A DNA stretch of 64,000 bases from Mycobacterium lepromatosis. GTDB lineage: Bacteria > Actinomycetota > Actinomycetes > Mycobacteriales > Mycobacteriaceae. The notes beneath the pieces are model-generated. The model searched no databases, was not told where the DNA came from, and saw only the letters and a list, made by a program, of their open reading frames with translations. Made by a program: the position numbers and the translations under genes. The stretch spans positions 1,860,001 through 1,924,000 of the forward strand of contig NZ_CP083405.1 in NCBI RefSeq assembly GCF_000975265.2, read 5' to 3'. Below are positions 19,753 to 30,026 of the stretch, in pieces. Position 1 is the first letter of the stretch, and the number at the start of each line of letters is the position of its first letter.

Positions 19753-21295
19753 GAGCCAAGCGTACGCAAGGCCGACTACACTGTCGAAAAAGCAGTGTGG
19801 CATTGACACTCGTTGGTCGCTAGAGTCCTGGTGTCCCTCGAAATATTTGTGGCCTTTGCTTTAGTCAGCTTAACCGCTACTGACATAGGAATAGTCGGCG
19901 ACGAACTCGGTCTCATTGATCTACTTCACTAGTTTGAAGTCGTGCCGCAACTCATTACGCAGTCGTAGCAGCTTGCCGTGTAACTAGGGGCGAGATGCTG
20001 GTCGTCTATGCTGTAGGCCGGCATCATCATAAGGCGGTCTATTTGACCGATGTGTTGCGTGTTGCAGTAAATGCCCCCGATCGCTCCAAGGACCATCGAA
20101 TAGAACAGTACCCACTTCGCCTAGGGCGGCGGTTTGATAATTTCCTTTATAGTATTTATTTGCACATCAAACTGTTTGGCGATGGCAGACTAAGACTGGA
20201 TGCGGAAGTGCTTGCTGATCTGTGGCAGGGTAGCGTCTTCAAGGTGGCGAGCGAGAAATCCTTCGCGTGCTCGCCGAGCAGCATAGAATTTCAGCTACCA
20301 AATCACGAAAGTCATTTTCTCCAAATCCTTGCACTCGCCGGTCTTCGGTAGAATTCTATTGAGCCAGTGGTGCGGTAAAACTTCTTTTCAGTTAAGGCAC
20401 TGGATTTCGGATCGTCGTGTTCCAGCGGCTGTTGGAACAGAACGACTAGTGCATATCCACCCCGCTGGACTACACGAGGATAGCACATGGTGAACGGAGT
20501 GGTACAAACTCGGATGATCGCCGTCACTAACATCGTCGCAGCGAAAATCCAGAAAGCCGTCTAGCTGTCGTCGCGGTCTGCGAACATATGGTTGAAGTTG
20601 TTCAGTTGGTGGATCAAGGATCGTCCACTCGGCTGTGACGGTTAAAATCTTTGCTGCAGAATAGAATTGATGGTTGTCGTTATTGTTGGCATACCGGTTC
20701 AACGAATCGCCGAGAACCGCTCGGTTCGGTATGTGAAAGTCCGTACTGCTTACATAGGCTCAGCAGAGACCAACGACAACCGTTGTATGCAGACCGACCG
20801 AACGCCGTTATATATCGGTATTCGGCGGCATTGCAAACACGATTCGGCCTGCACCCTGATCAACCAGGATGCCGGCGTGCTCGGCATTGATCGTGGTGAT
20901 ATTGTATCTTTAGTGACACTTCAAGCTGCGCTGGATCGCAGCTCGTAAACCGATGCCCCCTCGCGCATCCACCCGACCAGTTATGCGAACTGCGGACCGG
21001 TGACGCCTAGCGGTTGGCAGCTGTTGCCCAACCGTCAGGCGCAACGCGTAGCAGCCGGGGCGTGTACACCGATATCAACCAGAAGATATTCGCCAGCAAT
21101 TGGTTTTAGGTAGCACATGGCCCTCTCGAAGCTGAAGAATTCTCCATGGTATGATCTCCTTGCGGCTGGTGTGGCCCACACCAGCCGCAAAACAGCCAAC
21201 TGCGTCGGCGCCGACTATCCAACTCTGTACCACAGATCTTGAGCTCTTCCTTAAGTCAGCCCACGCCCATGCGTAACTGGAATCTGGCCTAGTTA
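19753..21295. other. Long gene-less stretch
   Basis: About 1.5 kb with only short frames. An open plus-strand frame at 19995-20351 and one at 20667-20948 (containing LINQDAGVLGIDRGDIVSL) were read but matched no family I know. The sequence has the mixed stop pattern of decayed genes. Nothing supportable on the minus strand except the remnant starting at 21631. Confidence 0.5.
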
Positions 21296-21631
21296 GAGTC
21301 TGCTGCTTGAGAGCGCATCAACCGTGGCGGCGCGTTTAGCGAGTATGACGGGATGGTGGTTGGGTAGTGCCAACACTCCAGTGGCCAACCCCAGCTGGTT
21401 CGTGGTGCCGGCTAAAAACGCCAGCAGATCAGGAGGGGTCAAGGATTGGGCAGTGAGCTGCCAGGCTAACTCGTTCGGAGCTATTGTAGAGATAGATGTT
21501 GTTGTACCAGGTAGCCAAGACTTTGTGCTAGAATGCAATTCACGATTTGAACCTGCACAGTTCAAGATGGCTGGCAAAGCCAGCCATCCGGTGTCGGTTC
21601 GCGGGGTGATACCAGTGGGTGACTGGTGCAA
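21296..21631 (-). pseudogene. Luciferase-like (LLM class) monooxygenase, N-terminal fragment
   Basis: The minus-strand frame carries PPDLLAFLAGTTNQLGLATG and VLALPNHHPVILAKRAATVD, ending ALSSSRL and a stop. This is the conserved beta-strand 3/4 region of F420- or flavin-dependent luciferase-like oxidoreductases (consensus RLGTGVLxLPxRxPxxLAKxxAxLDxLSGGR). Only about 100 residues remain and the cofactor-binding C-terminal half is absent, so it is a truncated pseudogene. One end lies about 100 bases from the left 557-bp repeat. Confidence 0.75.
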
Positions 21632-21744
21632 CGACTCCGACTTTGCAAGCAGGCAGTTATGGCCCCTTGCCTACGGCCCTAGGGTGTTGTTGATTTTTGT
21701 GTGGTTGAGGGGTGTGGTGGGTTATGTGGTGGGGATCGGTGGTG

Positions 21745-22301
21745 TGGGTTGTGTTGGTGGTTTAGGGTTGGTCGCGGCGTAGGTGGGCTGCTTGCAAGGG
21801 CCGCCGAGTAGTTGGTGTTGGTCACCGGCCGCGACATCGAAGCTGGCGATGCTGGGGGTGCGTCTGGTGTGGCGGGTGGCCGGGGATCAGTTGCGCTTTT
21901 CTGGTGATGTGTTAGCCCGCCACGCGCACAAGTCACCAGATCACGCCGTGGATGGCTTTTATCTTCCTTCCGCGGTCGATCCCCACAAAAAGTCAAGTAC
22001 TGCCCTAGGCTAGAGCACCGCCGTACGCGTCATCACCGGCTGCGAGGTCATCGACGAACTGTGAAACCAACACGGCACCAACACAGCCGGGGGCACACCG
22101 GCTGGCCGAGGGCCGGTGAACAAACAGACACCCCACAGCCATAGCATGCACCCGAAAGCGCCCCCAACACCCAGCGCCAACAAGATCTAGGCTAGCCCAC
22201 CAAACTCCCGACCGTATCGGCCAGCGATGGCACACCAGAACACTACTTCACCTGCCACCTATGAAACCGACCAACAATTCCTGCCACAAACACCAACACC
22301 C
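21745..22301 (+). repeat. 557-bp dispersed repeat, left copy flanking polA
   Basis: This stretch is the reverse complement of 25092-25648 with two mismatches that I could find by eye (within the triplets near 21803 and 21863), about 99.6 percent identity over 557 bases. Its inner end (GGGTGTTGGTG when read inward) coincides with the last base of the polA stop codon at 22301. The outer end reads TGGGTTGTGTTGGTGGTTT. The two ends share GTGTTGGTG in inverted orientation, so the unit has short imperfect terminal inverted repeats. No open frame longer than 76 codons is conserved in a protein-like way. M. leprae has several dispersed repeat families (RLEP, REPLEP, LEPREP, LEPRPT); I cannot say which this is. 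Confidence 0.93.
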
Positions 22302-25036
22302 TAGTGCGCAGCGGCATCCCACGAGCGACCAAAGCCAACACTCACCTCCAGCGGCACGTCCAAAGGGTAGGCACTGCCCATCTGCTCGCGCACTATGGCC
22401 TCGATCTGTTCGCGTTCTCCGGTCGCGACTTCGAACAGCAGCTCGTCGTGTACCTGTAGCAGCATTCGCGAAGCGAGTTTCGCCTTTTTGAGCGCCTTGT
22501 CAACCGCGATCATCGCCACCTTAATGATGTCGGCCGCACTGCCCTGGATCGGCGCGTTGAGCGCCGCCCGCTCGGCCGCCTCCCGTACCTGGCGATTACT
22601 GCTGTCCAGCTCGGGCAGATAACGTCGACGGCCCAATACCGTCGAGGTGTAACCGTCCTTGCGTGCCTGTTCGACGACATCCATCAGGTAGTCACGCACC
22701 CCGCCGAACCGGGCGAAGTATTGCTCCATCTGAAGCTTCGCCTCCTCGGTGGAGATTTTCAACTGTGCAGCCAACCCGTATGCGCTTAGCCCGTAGGCCA
22801 GCCCGTAGGACATTGCCTTGACTCGGCGCCGCAATTCGGCGGTAATATCCCCGGTCGGCACGCCGAATGCCCGCGAGGCCACAAACGAGTGCAGGTCTTC
22901 CCCCGTGTGGAAAGCCTCGATGAGGCCCTTATCTCGGGATAGGTGCGCCATGATCCGCATCTCGATTTGGCTGTAATCGGCGGTCATCAGTTCGGTGTAG
23001 CCGCTATTTCCCGAGCCGACGACGAACGCGTCCCGGATCTGCCGGCCGACGTTGGTGCGGATTGGAATGTTCTGCAGGTTTGGTTCTGTCGAAGACAGCC
23101 GGCCGGTCGTCGCGATCGTCTGGTTGAACGTGGTATGAATCCGGCCATCTGCGGCGATCGCGTTCAGCAACCCGTCAACGGTAACTTTGAGCCGGGTGAC
23201 GTCGCGGTGAGTGAGCAGATGCTGCAGAAATGGGTGTTCCGTTTTGCAGAACAGGTACTGCAAAGCATCGGCGTCAGTGGTGTAGCCGGTCTTGGTTCGC
23301 TTGGTCTTCGGCATGCCCAGTTCGTCGAACAACACGACCTGTAGTTGCTTGGGTGAGCCCAGATTGATCTTCTTGCCGATTACAGCGTAAGCGGCCTCAG
23401 CAGCGTCTCGGATCTGATCGCCGAATTGGCTCTGCAACTCGGTGAGCAACCGCAAATCGGCCGCGATACCAGCTTTCTCCATGTCAGCCAGCACCTGTTG
23501 GACCGGCAGCTCCATCTCACCTAGTAGCGCGGTAGATTCGATACGATCCAGCTCAGCGTCCAACGCAGCGGCGAGGTCTGCCACCGCCCGAGCCCGCAGT
23601 ATTAGGGTTTGGACGGTTTGCTTGTCCACCTCGTCGACGTTGTCAAGCAACGAAAACTGTTCTTGCTCAGGTGTTTCTACGCGCAGCTCGCGACGCAAGT
23701 AGCGGAGCGAGAGATCGTCCAGGGTGAAGCTGCGTTGCCCCGGCCGCACCAAGTAGGCCGCCAACGCAGTATCGGACGTGATGCCGCCCAGTGTCCAACC
23801 GCGACCCGCGAGATCGTGCATGGCCAGCTTCGCCTCATGCAGCGCTTTGGGGTTGTCGGGATCGGCCAACCAAGCCGCCAGCGCGTCGTCGTCGTCGGGA
23901 GTCAACGCCGCGGTGTCGATGTAGCCACCGTCGCCGTCGGCGGCGGCTATAGCTAGCGCAGTGGCGTCTCCTCCGTGCGGCAGATGTGTACCGACGATCA
24001 CTAGCCCGGACCTGCGCCCGTCATAGGCGTGCTTAGCCAGCCACCGCCCGATCGTGCCGGACTCCAGTACGCCGCCGCGGACGTCAAACCCCTCGTCGAC
24101 TTCGGGTACACGCTCCCTAGCGACGGCCAAAGCCTCAAACAACCGGTCACGTAACACCCGGAACTCTAGGTAGTCAAAGAGCTGGTGAATTTGGTCGCGA
24201 TCCCACGGCTGCAGCCGCAGCATGTCCAGATTTTGCACCAACGGCACATCTTTGACAAGCTGTGTGAGCTCTCGGTTGCGCACCACCCTGGCTAGATGCG
24301 CCCGTAACGCGTCGCCTACTTTGCCGCGGACCGAATCAACATTGTCGACCAGCCCCTGTAGCGAGCCGTACTCGACGATCCACTTGGCGGCGGTCTTTTC
24401 CCCCACGCCGGGAATACCGGGCAGATTGTCGCTGGGATCGCCACGTAGTGCCGCGAAGTCGGGGTATTGCTCCGGCATCAGCCCGTACTTCTCGAGGACA
24501 GCCTCTGGAGTGAAGCGGGTGAGTTCGCTGACGCCTTTACGAGGATACAACACCGTCACGTCGTCGCTGACCAATTGAAGCGCGTCGCGGTCACCAGTGA
24601 CCACTAACACGCGGTAACCCTCGTTTTCGGCTTGAGTAGCCAACGTCGCGATTAGGTCGTCAGCCTCGAATCCAGCCTCCGCGCACACCGTGATACCCAG
24701 CGCGCCTAGGATTTCTTTGGTGATGTCAATCTGGCCGTGGAACTCATCGGGGATCGATGGCCGATTAGCCTTGTACTCCGGATAGCACTCAGAGCGAAAC
24801 GTCTTCCGCGACACGTCAAACGCCGCAGCAATGTGAGTCGGAGCCTCTTCACGCAGCAAGTTGATTAGCATGGCGGTAAAGCCGTACACCGCGTTGGTGG
24901 TGAGGCCACCGCGGGTCTTGAAATTCTCCGTTGGCAGTGCGTAGAACGCGCGAAATGCCAGCGAATTGCCGTCCAGCAGCATCAGCACTGGCTTGGCTTG
25001 GTTTTGGCAAACTTTAGCGGTGGTCGCTGCACTCAC
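22301..25036 (-). CDS. polA: DNA polymerase I
   Basis: A 911-residue family A polymerase for Okazaki-fragment processing and repair synthesis. Residues about 17-310 are the 5'-3' exonuclease (MLLDGNSLAFRAFYALP; VVTGDRDALQL; GIPGVGEKTAAKWI). The middle domain lacks the clear Exo I-III acidic motifs of a proofreading exonuclease, as known for mycobacterial PolA. The polymerase domain has motif A DYSQIEMRIMAHLSRD, motif B RRRVKAMSYGLAYG and motif C QVHDELLFE. The start is GTG 25036. The stop codon's last base is also the first base of the left 557-bp repeat, and only 55 bases lie between the start codon and the right repeat, so the native promoter region has been replaced or displaced. Confidence 0.97.
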   Translation of the reverse strand: MSAATTAKVCQNQAKPVLMLLDGNSLAFRAFYALPTENFKTRGGLTTNAVYGFTAMLINLLREEAPTHIAAAFDVSRKTFRSECYPEYKANRPSIPDEFHGQIDITKEILGALGITVCAEAGFEADDLIATLATQAENEGYRVLVVTGDRDALQLVSDDVTVLYPRKGVSELTRFTPEAVLEKYGLMPEQYPDFAALRGDPSDNLPGIPGVGEKTAAKWIVEYGSLQGLVDNVDSVRGKVGDALRAHLARVVRNRELTQLVKDVPLVQNLDMLRLQPWDRDQIHQLFDYLEFRVLRDRLFEALAVARERVPEVDEGFDVRGGVLESGTIGRWLAKHAYDGRRSGLVIVGTHLPHGGDATALAIAAADGDGGYIDTAALTPDDDDALAAWLADPDNPKALHEAKLAMHDLAGRGWTLGGITSDTALAAYLVRPGQRSFTLDDLSLRYLRRELRVETPEQEQFSLLDNVDEVDKQTVQTLILRARAVADLAAALDAELDRIESTALLGEMELPVQQVLADMEKAGIAADLRLLTELQSQFGDQIRDAAEAAYAVIGKKINLGSPKQLQVVLFDELGMPKTKRTKTGYTTDADALQYLFCKTEHPFLQHLLTHRDVTRLKVTVDGLLNAIAADGRIHTTFNQTIATTGRLSSTEPNLQNIPIRTNVGRQIRDAFVVGSGNSGYTELMTADYSQIEMRIMAHLSRDKGLIEAFHTGEDLHSFVASRAFGVPTGDITAELRRRVKAMSYGLAYGLSAYGLAAQLKISTEEAKLQMEQYFARFGGVRDYLMDVVEQARKDGYTSTVLGRRRYLPELDSSNRQVREAAERAALNAPIQGSAADIIKVAMIAVDKALKKAKLASRMLLQVHDELLFEVATGEREQIEAIVREQMGSAYPLDVPLEVSVGFGRSWDAAAH

Positions 25037-25091
25037 GACTCATACTCTAAGATCTCACCTTGTTATTGTGTTGTTGTTGTGTGGTGGCCGG

Positions 25092-25648
25092 GGGTGTTGG
25101 TGTTTGTGGCAGGAATTGTTGGTCGGTTTCATAGGTGGCAGGTGAAGTAGTGTTCTGGTGTGCCATCGCTGGCCGATACGGTCGGGAGTTTGGTGGGCTA
25201 GCCTAGATCTTGTTGGCGCTGGGTGTTGGGGGCGCTTTCGGGTGCATGCTATGGCTGTGGGGTGTCTGTTTGTTCACCGGCCCTCGGCCAGCCGGTGTGC
25301 CCCCGGCTGTGTTGGTGCCGTGTTGGTTTCACAGTTCGTCGATGACCTCGCAGCCGGTGATGACGCGTACGGCGGTGCTCTAGCCTAGGGCAGTACTTGA
25401 CTTTTTGTGGGGATCGACCGCGGAAGGAAGATAAAAGCCATCCACGGCGTGATCTGGTGACTTGTGCGCGTGGCGGGCTAACACATCACCAGAAAAGCGC
25501 AACTGATCCCCGGCCACCCGCCACACCATACGCACCCCCAGCATCGCCAGCTTCGATGTCGCGGCCGGCGACCAACACCAACTACTCAGCGGCCCTTGCA
25601 AGCAGCCCACCTACGCCGCGACCAACCCTAAACCACCAACACAACCCA
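25092..25648 (-). repeat. 557-bp dispersed repeat, right copy flanking polA
   Basis: Inverted copy of 21745-22301; same length, two observed mismatches. It starts 56 bases upstream of the polA start codon, so transcription of polA must begin in the 55 unique bases, inside this repeat, or beyond it. The unique DNA on its far side (from 25649) is unrelated to that outside the left copy, which fixes the repeat boundary. Confidence 0.93.
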
Positions 25649-25744
25649 GGCAGTGCGAACTAGCTCATCCACCAGCGCCTCACACACTGATGGATGAGCC
25701 CAATCAGGCCGCGGCTTGCCCCATAGCAGCAGGCGACCGCCAAC

Positions 25745-26370
25745 CCGATACTTCACGCCCCATGGCCAAAACAACTCACTGAGCAGTGATTCGGTAACCG
25801 CTTAGACCGCACTCGCGCCTGGCCGATGAAGTCATAGTCAGCCTGGGTAAGAACGGTCGCATCGACCCTAGACCCCGAACATCACACGGTGTCAATCACG
25901 CACTGAATGACCGGCAGCACCAAGAGCGTCGTAAGCGCCACCGCGCTGTCCAGCAGGAACTGCGGCAGCACCGCGATCCCGAAGATGGCCGCTTTAGGGG
26001 TTGATGGCGATCGACCTACTCGTGGCGAAGCCGGCTAGGTAACTAGCGCGACGGGGACCTCGATATAGGCTTGGGCGCTTAGCATGACGCTACGCGTTGG
26101 TGCCGAGTCAGACCAGGATTGCCGCCTTGATGACGTGCAGCATCACCGACAGTGTACGGTTGTCCATCAGTAACACCGACAATCCGGCGCTGCCGGGTTA
26201 TGGTCCAGCCGAACAACCCGATTTCGTTGCCGACACACGACCGCCAGACCTGCCGCACGACCGCCCCGAACCGAATGGCGCAACAACAACGCGATGGCGG
26301 GACTGGGAAGAACGGCAAGGATGACGCAGGCCAGCAGGAAGGCCGGCAGCGCGTTGACCAGATATTGCAT
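25745..26370 (-). pseudogene. LysE/RhtB-type amino-acid exporter, decayed
   Basis: Minus-strand fragments follow the family order. MQYLVNALPAFLLACVILAVL and ALLLRHSVRGGRAAGLAVV (26370-26250) form helix 1; GNEIGLFGWTI (about 26236-26204) replaces the usual VGxxxGxxxW segment; SVMLHVIKAAILVWLGTNA (about 26150-26095) is helix 3. NPKAAIFGIAVLPQFLLDSAV-like text (about 25990-25930, in two frames) and ADYDFIGQARVRSK (25840-25800) mark the C-terminus. At least three frame changes. The protein would have been an inner-membrane exporter of six helices. Confidence 0.72.
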
Positions 26371-26653
26371 GACCGGGGTATGTCGGATGAGTCAAGCCAT
26401 TTTTGTTAGCATTGTCTTTCAAACAGGTGGCGGATATGGCTCAGCGAATGAGCAGCTTCATGCCATTCTGACGATGTCACCATCCCCAGGTGACCCGGTG
26501 GTGGCTAAATGCGCATTTTCGGTGAGTCAAGGCGCGAGTTTGTCCAGCATGTGCACAGTCGAGTAACCTCGGTAGGTAATCGCCCGCACAGGATAGCGGG
26601 GGAGTAATGCCAATTGTCCCTACGACTGAGCATGTCCGGAGCAAATCAACAAC
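26371..26653. other. Upstream region of rpsA
   Basis: About 280 bases with no gene. It should contain the rpsA promoter. I did not identify convincing -10/-35 boxes; the Shine-Dalgarno region before ATG 26654 is weak (CATGTCCGGAGCAAATCAACA). Confidence 0.35.
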
Positions 26654-28096
26654 ATGTCGAGTCCCGCCGTAACCTCGCCCCAAGTAGCCGTCAATGACGT
26701 AGGCTCCGGCGAGGACTTTCTTGCCGCAATAGACAAAACGATCAAGTACTTTAACGATGGTGACATCGTCGAAGGCACCATCGTTAAAGTGGACCGAGAC
26801 GAGGTGCTCCTCGACATCGGCTACAAAACCGAAGGGGTAATTCCCTCCCGCGAACTCTCCATCAAACACGACGTTGACCCCAATGAGGTCGTTTCCGTGG
26901 GAGACGAGGTCGAGGCCCTGGTACTTACCAAAGAGGACAAAGAGGGGCGGCTGATCCTGTCCAAGAAGCGCGCGCAGTACGAGCGCGCGTGGGGCACCAT
27001 CGAGGTGCTCAAGGAGAAGGATGAGGCCGTCAAGGGCGTCGTCATCGAAGTGGTCAAGGGTGGCCTGATCCTCGACATCGGGTTGCGTGGCTTCCTGCCC
27101 GCCTCGTTGGTGGAGATGCGTCGTGTTCGCGATCTGCAACCATACATCGGCAAGGAGATCGAGGCCAAGATCATCGAGCTAGACAAAAACCGCAACAACG
27201 TGGTATTATCGCGACGGGCGTGGCTGGAACAAACCCAATCTGAAGTGCGCAGCGAGTTTCTCAATCGGCTGCAGAAGGGTAATATACGCAAGGGTGTAGT
27301 GTCGTCCATCGTCAACTTCGGCGCTTTCGTCGATCTGGGTGGTGTGGACGGTCTGGTGCACGTCTCCGAGCTGTCCTGGAAGCATATCGACCACCCGTCC
27401 GAGGTTGTCCAGGTAGGTAACGAGGTTACCGTCGAGGTGCTTGACGTCGATATGGACCGTGAGCGGGTTTCGTTGTCGCTCAAAGCAACTCAGGAAGATC
27501 CGTGGAGGCACTTCGCCCGTACCCACGCCATCGGGCAAATCGTGCCAGGTAAGGTCACCAAGCTGGTTCCGTTTGGCGCCTTCGTTCGTGTTGAGGAGGG
27601 CATCGAAGGTCTGATTCACATCTCGGAGCTGGCCGAGCAGCACGTCGAGGTGCCTGACCAGGTGGTTGCTGTCGGCGACGATGCGATGGTCAAGGTCATC
27701 GACATCGACTTGGAGCGGCGCCGGATTTCACTGTCGTTGAAGCAGGCCAACGAGGACTACATCGAGGAGTTCGACCCGGCGAAGTACGGTATGGCCGACA
27801 GCTACGACGAGCAGGGCAACTATATCTTCCCTGAGGGCTTTGATCCCGACTCCAACGAGTGGCTGGAGGGCTTCGACACCCAGCGCGCCGAATGGGAGGC
27901 TCGTTATGCTGAAGCCGAACGTCGATACAAGATGCACACCACCCAGATGGAAAAGTTCGCTGCCACCGAGGATGCCGGACGTAGTAGCGAGCAGGCCCTG
28001 GCCGGCAGTACACCGCCGGCGACGGCCACAGGTGGGTCACTGGCTAGCGATGCCCAACTAGCCGCTCTACGGGAAAAGCTCGCCGGCGGCGCGTAA
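26654..28096 (+). CDS. rpsA: 30S ribosomal protein S1
   Basis: A 480-residue S1 with four OB-fold S1 motifs rather than six as in E. coli. Motif 1 starts at GDIVEGTIVKVDRDEVLLDIG (around residue 36-56, seen here in part), motif 2 at VKGVVIEVVKGGLILDIGL, motif 3 at RKGVVSSIVNFGAFVDLG and motif 4 at VPGKVTKLVPFGAFVRVEEG; the last two have the strong RNA-binding F-G-A-F-V core. The C-terminal 110 residues are acidic and flexible (EEFDPAKYGM, ending LREKLAGGA). It binds mRNA at the ribosome and, in mycobacteria, also trans-translation components. A 15-bp perfect inverted repeat lies in codons 32-46. Confidence 0.97.
   Translation: MSSPAVTSPQVAVNDVGSGEDFLAAIDKTIKYFNDGDIVEGTIVKVDRDEVLLDIGYKTEGVIPSRELSIKHDVDPNEVVSVGDEVEALVLTKEDKEGRLILSKKRAQYERAWGTIEVLKEKDEAVKGVVIEVVKGGLILDIGLRGFLPASLVEMRRVRDLQPYIGKEIEAKIIELDKNRNNVVLSRRAWLEQTQSEVRSEFLNRLQKGNIRKGVVSSIVNFGAFVDLGGVDGLVHVSELSWKHIDHPSEVVQVGNEVTVEVLDVDMDRERVSLSLKATQEDPWRHFARTHAIGQIVPGKVTKLVPFGAFVRVEEGIEGLIHISELAEQHVEVPDQVVAVGDDAMVKVIDIDLERRRISLSLKQANEDYIEEFDPAKYGMADSYDEQGNYIFPEGFDPDSNEWLEGFDTQRAEWEARYAEAERRYKMHTTQMEKFAATEDAGRSSEQALAGSTPPATATGGSLASDAQLAALREKLAGGA
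26748..26790 (+). promoter_or_regulatory. 15-bp perfect hairpin inside the start of rpsA
   Basis: ACTTTAACGATGGTG (26748-26762) is followed after a 13-base loop by its exact reverse complement (26776-26790). The arms would form a stable stem in the rpsA mRNA around codons 32-46. S1 synthesis is autoregulated in other bacteria through its own mRNA structure, usually at the leader, so a role here is only a suggestion. The arms also encode real protein (KYFNDGD and GTIVKVD). Confidence 0.5.
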
Positions 28097-29359: not shown

Positions 29360-30026
29360 ATAGGCCCTAAGTAGACATGAGCGCGTCGGCATCGCAACCC
29401 TGATCAACAGAGCCGATGTAGGATAAACTCACTTTTTGTGCTTTGTGGGCTTATGCTAACACGGCAGGAGTGGGATGAACTGTGTCCAGCCGAACACAGT
29501 TCAGATTTACTTAATGCTGGAGAGGGTGGTGCGGTCAGTGGCATCCTAGGCCAACGGCACGATGCGCGGGCCGGAGCCCGAAACCGTTTTAGCAACATTG
29601 GGTGCGGTGGGTAGAGAGCGGTGGTGCGACTACTTGCGGTGGTCACTTGGATCGGTAAAGTTTTTGCAGGCATTGGCTTGGTCGATCCCGCAGTTGTGGC
29701 CAACACTTTATCGCGTTTGCTATCCCCGTCGTCGTTTGTCCTTGGCGAGGTGGTCCGGTCGTAGCCAGATTCGCCTACGACCGGACCAACAATGGGTAGA
29801 TCATCTGCGAAGACAACAGCGAGGCTAAAGCCCCCCGTTACGACCAGAGTTCACGCCTTCGATAGTTTGTGCGACCGGCAGGGTATCTCGGTGTTTGCCA
29901 TAGCCCACCTCCAGCGATAGCCACCGGCTTCAATGCGATCCGGCCGCTCGGGTGTGGACCCGTTCCGCGGGATAGACCCGGCTGGATTGCAGTCACCTTC
30001 TTTGTGCCTGATCTTACGCTGGAGGC
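29360..30026. other. Intergenic region between coaE and uvrB
   Basis: No supported gene; M. tuberculosis has a small minus-strand gene here. The plus strand has a readable but broken stretch VVRLLAVVTWIGKVFAGIGLV near 29620-29690 with the look of a hydrophobic segment, without recognised family. A strong inverted repeat lies at 29751-29788. Confidence 0.4.
29751..29788. repeat. 14-bp perfect inverted repeat (hairpin)
   Basis: TGGTCCGGTCGTAG (29751-29764) pairs exactly with CTACGACCGGACCA (29775-29788) around a 10-base loop. There is no T-run after either arm, so it does not look like a canonical intrinsic terminator, though mycobacterial terminators often lack the T-run. It could end transcripts from coaE or from a lost minus-strand gene, or be a protein-binding site. 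Confidence 0.6.

What the first reader, a model, noticed from the sequence alone, without database searches (positions are those of the whole stretch)
21745..25648. polA enclosed by two 557-bp inverted repeats that touch its stop codon and nearly its start
Copies 21745-22301 and 25092-25648 are inverted, equal in length and differ by two bases that I could find. The left one shares the last base of the polA stop and the right one begins 56 bases before the polA start. The gene therefore has little of its own flanking DNA left. Recombination between the copies would invert a 2.8-kb polA cassette without breaking it. The promoter of an important repair gene must lie in 55 bases or in the repeat itself.
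Basis: seen in the sequence. Interest (0 to 1): 0.75.

Follow-up and report, generated by a model that had tools for sequence, protein, structure and literature searches.

The report
Decayed jumping genes bracket flipped polA
In a genome whose exact length matches the leprosy bacterium Mycobacterium lepromatosis, the DNA-repair gene polA lies between two facing remnants of an old jumping gene, one ending in its stop codon and the other just before its predicted promoter, and it points the opposite way to its neighbour rpsA than in the 44 relatives where both genes could be compared, most likely because recombination between such remnants flipped it in the ancestor shared with M. leprae.

Summary
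Confirmed: inverted 557-bp copies (21745-22301, 25092-25648; 3 differences) enclose polA. They are two of 38 copies of a published repeat, RLPM, counterpart of RLEP in M. leprae. New here: (1) both repeats are decayed deletion derivatives of an IS1182-family insertion sequence; intact relatives in two other mycobacteria are bounded by CTAG. (2) The left copy has CTAG at both edges, the inner one containing polA's stop codon. The right copy stops at a TTAG overlapping the -10 box of a conserved, predicted leaderless promoter, though without a recognisable terminus. (3) polA runs with rpsA in 44 of 44 comparable relatives but against it here and in M. leprae, so the change predates the species split; a second repeat-bounded cassette is a clean inversion against M. 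uberis. (4) RLPM and RLEP keep different parts of one parent at 23 matched sites, so each species probably overwrote its copies. Against a live switch: five of five short inverted-pair cassettes have one orientation in both species, and the predicted promoter moves with the gene. polA's left neighbour is also new, so at least two rearrangements occurred. FJ924 was assembled from short reads with help from M. leprae, and most repeat copies lack clear CTAG ends.

The parts
21679..21682 (.). CTAG at the outer edge of the left copy
21683..22300 (+). Left RLPM copy, 618 bp: GGTGTTGTTG...CAACACC; decayed IS1182-family remnant (profile 753-1084 and 1556-1644)
21745..22301 (+). Left identity arm, 557 bp
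22301..22304 (.). CTAG at the inner edge of the left copy; contains the polA stop codon (TAG, minus strand, 22301-22303)
22301..25036 (-). polA, DNA polymerase I, 911 aa, GTG start
25044..25049 (-). Predicted -10 box TAGAGT, 7 nt before the GTG start (leaderless-type promoter); overlaps TTAG at 25047-25050
   Evidence: no transcript mapped
25051..25721 (-). Right RLPM copy, longer IS1182-family remnant (profile 674-1085 and 1556-1644); inner limit approximate, no recognisable terminus there
25092..25648 (-). Right identity arm, 557 bp
25878..26456 (+). Remnant of the ancestral polA-rpsA spacer (aligns forward to M. uberis)
26654..28096 (+). rpsA, the neighbour that shows the reversal

Best explanation
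polA lies between two oppositely facing, decayed copies of an IS1182-family insertion sequence (the RLPM repeat) and points the other way relative to rpsA than in the 44 relatives where both genes could be compared, most likely because recombination between inverted copies turned it around in the common ancestor of the two leprosy bacilli. Shown: the arms, the IS1182 homology, CTAG or TTAG where polA meets the copies, the reversed gene order, and the same arrangement in M. leprae TN. Inferred: the parent element inserted at CTAG-like sites, one in the polA stop codon (well supported) and one at the -10 box (weaker, since no terminus is recognisable there). Insertion of this kind would spare the gene because CTAG stands on both sides of intact elements. 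Predicted: polA is transcribed from a leaderless promoter whose -10 box stays with the gene, so a flip would leave its start signal intact. Also inferred: gene conversion keeps the arms alike and explains why RLPM and RLEP keep different parts of one parent at matching sites. I found no transposase domain in the window copies, so later rearrangement would rely on general homologous recombination.
For: Arms. 38 copies, RLPM. IS1182 transposase in the related intact elements, above NCBI's cut-off; profile hits for RLPM E 9e-29 and RLEP E 5e-21 against a best of -1.4 bits in 400 shuffles; CTAG on both sides of 9 of 9 fetched G080 copies. Stop-codon junction in three species. Conserved TANNNT box: 75 of 102 loci at exactly 7 nt. 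polA and rpsA same way in 44 of 44; reversed here and in TN. Clean in-place inversion of cassette c1 against M. uberis, and flank/inside reversal in two further outgroups.
Against: polA's left flank and old upstream neighbours have also moved, so a lone 2.8-kb flip does not explain the locus. Three of the other four short cassettes are joins of distant pieces, not in-place flips. Clear CTAG-like ends are a minority: RLPM left 16 of 38, right 4 of 38; RLEP left 7 of 30, right 5 of 30, and many of these share copied flanks, so they are not independent. The right terminus of RLPM does not clearly resemble that of the intact element, and the profile search did not reach either terminus. CTAG at the polA stop occurs in only 18 of 80 relatives. 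FJ924 was built from short reads with alignment to M. leprae, so its polA orientation may not be independent.
Confidence: 0.72

Rival explanations
1. One intramolecular, copy-making transposition of the parent element both duplicated it in inverted orientation and inverted the DNA between the copies; no later recombination was needed.
For: Gives in one step what is seen at cassette c1: inverted copies, inverted middle, almost no loss. Intact elements and CTAG edges show that transposition once happened.
Against: At polA the two copies have different ends and extents, and the left neighbour is foreign. IS1182 transposition is not known to me to work this way; recalled, not tested.
Confidence: 0.15
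2. A live inversion switch: the arms recombine often today and polA exists in both orientations in populations.
For: Arms 99.5% identical here and 100% over 923 bp in M. leprae TN; the predicted promoter would move with the gene.
Against: Same orientation in both species for five of five short inverted-pair cassettes; only one genome per species was seen, and the FJ924 orientation may follow M. leprae. No recombinase was sought or seen beside the arms.
Confidence: 0.07
3. Assembly artefact: repeat copies were filled with a consensus and the polA cassette was placed by analogy with M. leprae.
For: Short-read assembly with M. leprae used for draft construction; 12 final gaps were all flanked by repeats (PMC9248898 passages).
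Against: M. leprae TN, a separate assembly, shows the same reversal. The arms differ by subtype-specific bases (29 of 38 against 4 of 38). The paper reports PCR and Sanger closing of those gaps.
Confidence: 0.04
4. A composite transposon: two insertion sequences that carried polA as cargo.
For: Two inverted copies of an insertion-sequence remnant flank one gene.
Against: polA still sits beside its old spacer and rpsA; no transposase domain in the window ORFs of the repeat; the right copy lacks its outer terminus.
Confidence: 0.02

Closest known systems
RLPM, repeat type A of M. lepromatosis FJ924 (PMC9248898; passages read)
   Same: Same family: 38 copies in both counts, 99.2-100% identity, similar length
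   Different: The passages give no polA locus (0 mentions in the main text), no parent element and no insertion target
RLEP of M. leprae (PMC8620619, PMC9635560; passages read)
   Same: Flanks polA in the same way in TN; copies often at gene 3' ends; already suggested to be transposon vestiges
   Different: Keeps a different part of the parent element; 51% identical to RLPM end to end; IS1182 parentage not stated in what I read
IS1182-family insertion sequences (e.g. ISMap02 in M. avium subsp. paratuberculosis, PMC7823733; passages read)
   Same: Colinear homology over the transposase gene, same left terminus apart from four transitions, CTAG at the edges
   Different: RLPM and RLEP are about a third of the length and carry no transposase frame; ISMap02 itself was not compared
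Novel polA locus of M. leprae associated with genomic variability (Fsihi and Cole 1995; recalled title, paper not seen, absent from the library)
   Same: By its title, the same locus in the sister species
   Different: Content not checked; it may already report RLEP on both sides of polA
Inversions associated with pairs of inverted repeats in bacteria (PMC5372343; search listing and start of abstract only)
   Same: Inverted repeats at the edges of an inverted segment
   Different: Here the segment is one gene from -10 box to stop, and the repeat is an insertion-sequence remnant

Membership tests
RLPM / RLEP dispersed repeat | High identity to the genome-wide family | tested here: met
   15 of 15 scored copies 100% identical to the left arm; 38 places
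RLPM / RLEP dispersed repeat | Copy number and length as published | tested here: met
   38 copies against 38 published; 618 bp against a 626-nt core
IS1182 family (as decayed remnant) | Sequence descent from an IS1182-family element | tested here: met
   with shuffled controls
IS1182 family (as decayed remnant) | Intact transposase gene | tested here: not met
   Two window ORFs of the repeat have no Pfam domain; only fragments match the transposase
IS1182 family (as decayed remnant) | Terminal inverted repeats and CTAG at both edges, as in the intact relatives | tested here: inconclusive
   Met at the left polA copy and the c1 right copy; clear CTAG-like ends in a minority of copies; right terminus unlike the intact element
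Invertible DNA switch (phase variation) | Both orientations found | tested here: not met
   Same orientation in the two genomes available, five of five cassettes
Invertible DNA switch (phase variation) | Flip changes expression | not testable with these tools
   The predicted promoter lies inside the flipped segment
Composite transposon | Cargo moved as a unit between complete insertion sequences | tested here: not met
   polA keeps one ancestral neighbour; copies lack transposase
Leaderless mycobacterial promoter | TANNNT just upstream of the start codon, conserved | tested here: met
   75 of 102 loci at exactly 7 nt
Leaderless mycobacterial promoter | Mapped transcript 5' end at the start codon | not tested
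   No transcript data here; the main text of PMC3898074 has no polA or Rv1629

The most novel reading that the evidence does not exclude
The two leprosy bacilli inherited one IS1182-family element at 23 or more shared sites, and each species has since overwritten its copies with a different deletion derivative by gene conversion across the whole genome, so the polA arms are renewed inverted repeats rather than fossils.
Probability: 0.45. Interest if true: 0.75.

Novelty: new variant of a known kind. Interest (0 to 1): 0.6.

Why it matters
RLEP is a standard DNA target for detecting leprosy bacilli, and a review gives its origin only as a likely transposon vestige. Naming the parent family and its CTAG target offers a reason why copies sit at gene 3' ends: a TAG stop after a C is a CTAG. 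It also explains why RLEP and RLPM look almost unrelated although they share sites. The polA locus shows how an important gene can be boxed in by insertions and turned round yet keep its start and stop signals. If each species did overwrite its copies, the leprosy bacilli would be a good natural case for measuring gene conversion in a shrinking genome.

Tried and rejected
Rfam on 15-33 kb: nothing. Pfam on the two window ORFs of the repeat: nothing. tblastx of the left flank against five relatives gave chain noise, partly cut, and was dropped for blastn genome searches. A simple 2.8-kb flip was given up as the whole story when the old upstream genes turned up about 95 kb away. First guesses for the element type (IS630- or IS5-like, from memory) were dropped when IS1182 relatives appeared. 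My reading of 25649-26054 as pure neighbouring flank was corrected: its first part is insertion sequence. I read the spacer pseudogene as a LysE-type transporter by eye; Pfam found nothing, so it is not claimed. Five close inverted pairs looked striking, but chance gives 4.8. The motif finder missed most loci and was replaced. Paper searches for the 1995 polA paper found nothing usable.

Full report
WHAT IS THERE. The two arms are real: 557 bp each, inverted, ungapped, three differences, and the only inverted pair of 40 nt or more that the repeat finder reports in the window. polA (911 aa, polymerase and 5'-3' exonuclease domains) fills the space between them. The window lies in a single-contig genome of 3,271,694 bp, exactly the published length of M. 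lepromatosis FJ924 (PMC9248898, passages read). A 35-base piece of the arm occurs 38 times there, 18 forward and 20 reverse, the count that paper gives for its repeat RLPM, the counterpart of RLEP in M. leprae. The repeat family is therefore known. The paper's main text does not mention polA.

WHAT THE REPEAT IS. A search of 52 genomes with the 620-base element gave no match in M. uberis, but repeated copies of a related element in two other mycobacteria, G080 (9 matches) and G245 (11 matches); 11 candidates per genome were scored. In all, 6 of 52 genomes had a match: M. leprae, these two, and three with only 26-28 bases. The related elements carry a transposase (Pfam DDE_Tnp_1_6 and DUF772) that passes NCBI's IS1182-family cut-off (281.9 and 291.5 against 270). 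The repeat aligns to them colinearly. A profile of two intact elements (1814 and 1925 bp) finds RLPM at 753-1084 (E 9e-29) and 1556-1644 (E 0.017), and RLEP at 1028-1642 (E 5e-21). The best of 400 shuffled controls scored -1.4 bits, and the two reversed sequences gave no hit. The left terminus also agrees: CTAG|GACGCTGCTGATTT in G080, CTAG|GGTGTTGTTGATTT in RLPM, four differences, all transitions. The right termini do not clearly agree. All 9 fetched G080 copies have CTAG on both sides; in G245, 6 of 7 have it on the left and a string search found it on the right in 3 of 7. I conclude that RLPM and RLEP are decayed, internally deleted remnants of an IS1182-family element. A review already calls these repeats likely transposon vestiges and notes RLEP at gene 3' ends (PMC9635560, passages). 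In open-licence papers I found none naming the family: one paper holds RLEP with transposase, and its transposase passage concerns another gene; IS1182 with CTAG gave two papers, seen as listings; a wider search listed 15 of 107 papers, and no listed paper holds both RLEP and IS1182. Subscription papers were not searched.

HOW IT SITS ON polA. The left element, 21683-22300, has CTAG on each side, and the inner CTAG contains the polA stop codon. M. uberis has CTAG at the polA stop and no RLPM match; M. leprae TN has TAA followed by the same GGTGTTG end at the same place. CTAG at the polA stop is not universal: 18 of 80 loci. On the other side, alignment of the polA segment stops at 25051 against M. 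uberis and 25056 against TN, next to TTAG at 25047-25050, which overlaps TAGAGT, 7 nt before GTG. The right copy shows no recognisable terminus there, and its last 20 or so bases are of unclear origin. So insertion at the -10 box is likely but less sure than insertion at the stop. Of 108 polA loci given, 102 passed anchoring. In 75 of the 102, TANNNT stands exactly 7 nt before an in-frame start; 20 have it at 6 nt, 6 at 8 nt, and at most 2 at any other distance up to 29 (classes may overlap). This fits the mycobacterial -10 motif in PMC3898074 (passages). The promoter is a prediction; no transcript was mapped. What the repeats leave to polA is its -10 box, its coding sequence and its stop.

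THE INVERSION. Of 80 fetched relatives, 44 stretches held both polA and rpsA, and in 44 of 44 they run the same way (36 lacked rpsA). Here they run opposite ways, and M. leprae TN has the same arrangement with 923-bp identical arms. In M. uberis the polA segment aligns in reverse while the spacer and rpsA align forward. The old upstream genes (response regulator, thiolase, OB-fold protein) now lie about 95 kb away beside another RLPM copy here, and beside an RLEP copy in TN. The new left flank and the far side of that other copy map to different places in outgroup G045. At least three joins are new, so I infer at least two rearrangements, older than the split of the two species because both share them. 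Four other short inverted pairs exist. One, c1 (299682-304438 of the genome), is a clean in-place inversion of about 3.6 kb against M. uberis, with CTAG at both junctions there; two more distant genomes show the same reversal with some extra DNA. One of its four edges is not clean. There too the repeat lies in stop codons, of a sugar-epimerase-like gene and of a DUF2304 gene. The other three pairs join pieces from different places. All five keep the same orientation in M. leprae.

ONE PARENT, TWO RELICS. Of 38 RLPM sites, 23 match an RLEP site on both flanks, 8 on one flank or on two different loci, and 7 on neither (31 of 36 RLEP loci were in hand). At these sites one species carries the RLPM part of the parent and the other the RLEP part. 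Caution: each set was found with its own repeat, so a copy of the other type alone would have been missed in M. lepromatosis; in TN the RLPM query gave only 69-76% matches. One TN copy (L233) holds both stretches, and one M. lepromatosis copy (L126) holds part of the RLEP stretch, so both types come from one longer parent. Repeated gene conversion in each lineage is the simplest account. Consensus filling during short-read assembly may exaggerate identity inside FJ924. The polA arms belong to two subtypes: the left has the common bases (29 of 38 copies), the right the rarer set (4 of 38).

COUNTS AGAINST A TIDY STORY. Clear CTAG-like ends are a minority: RLPM left 16 of 38, right 4 of 38; RLEP left 7 of 30, right 5 of 30. 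Many copies share pieces of each other's flanks, so these ends are not independent insertions. The copies have clearly been reshuffled since insertion.

HOW IT LIKELY WORKS. Parent elements inserted at CTAG-like sites; insertion in a stop codon or at the edge of a -10 box could be tolerated because the tetranucleotide stands on both sides of the element. Inverted copies then recombined, or one intramolecular transposition both copied and inverted, turning polA round with its start and stop signals. This is inference from anatomy and comparison. The data do not show present-day flipping and speak against frequent flipping.

Noticed in passing
G000:C1 pairs near 300/304, 1273/1283, 1358/1362, 1882/1885 and 2343/2351 kb: All five neighbouring RLPM pairs closer than 12 kb are inverted with the same ends facing inward (permutation p 0.001), although the number of pairs is what chance gives (4.8); TN has the same five.
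   Followed up: partly
L098-L127, L161-L168 (38 copies); L169-L198: Copies share nested pieces of each other's flanks, for example a c1 flank on several other copies in both species, as if repeats spread or were converted together with neighbouring DNA.
   Followed up: partly
G130:C1:1647296-1647598 against window 25707-25999: In M. leprae the left polA arm carries an extra copy of about 298 bp of the DNA outside the right arm, absent at the left arm here.
   Followed up: partly
L233 (TN, 3247.6 kb) and L126 (FJ924, 2343.0 kb): Two less-deleted copies that hold pieces of both the RLPM and the RLEP part of the parent element.
   Followed up: partly
window 29389-29401: M. leprae TN has about 5.5 kb between coaE and uvrB where this genome has 11 bases.
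   Followed up: no
window 21293-21631: Fragment of a luciferase-like monooxygenase gene (PF00296, E 1.3e-9) beside the left copy.
   Followed up: no
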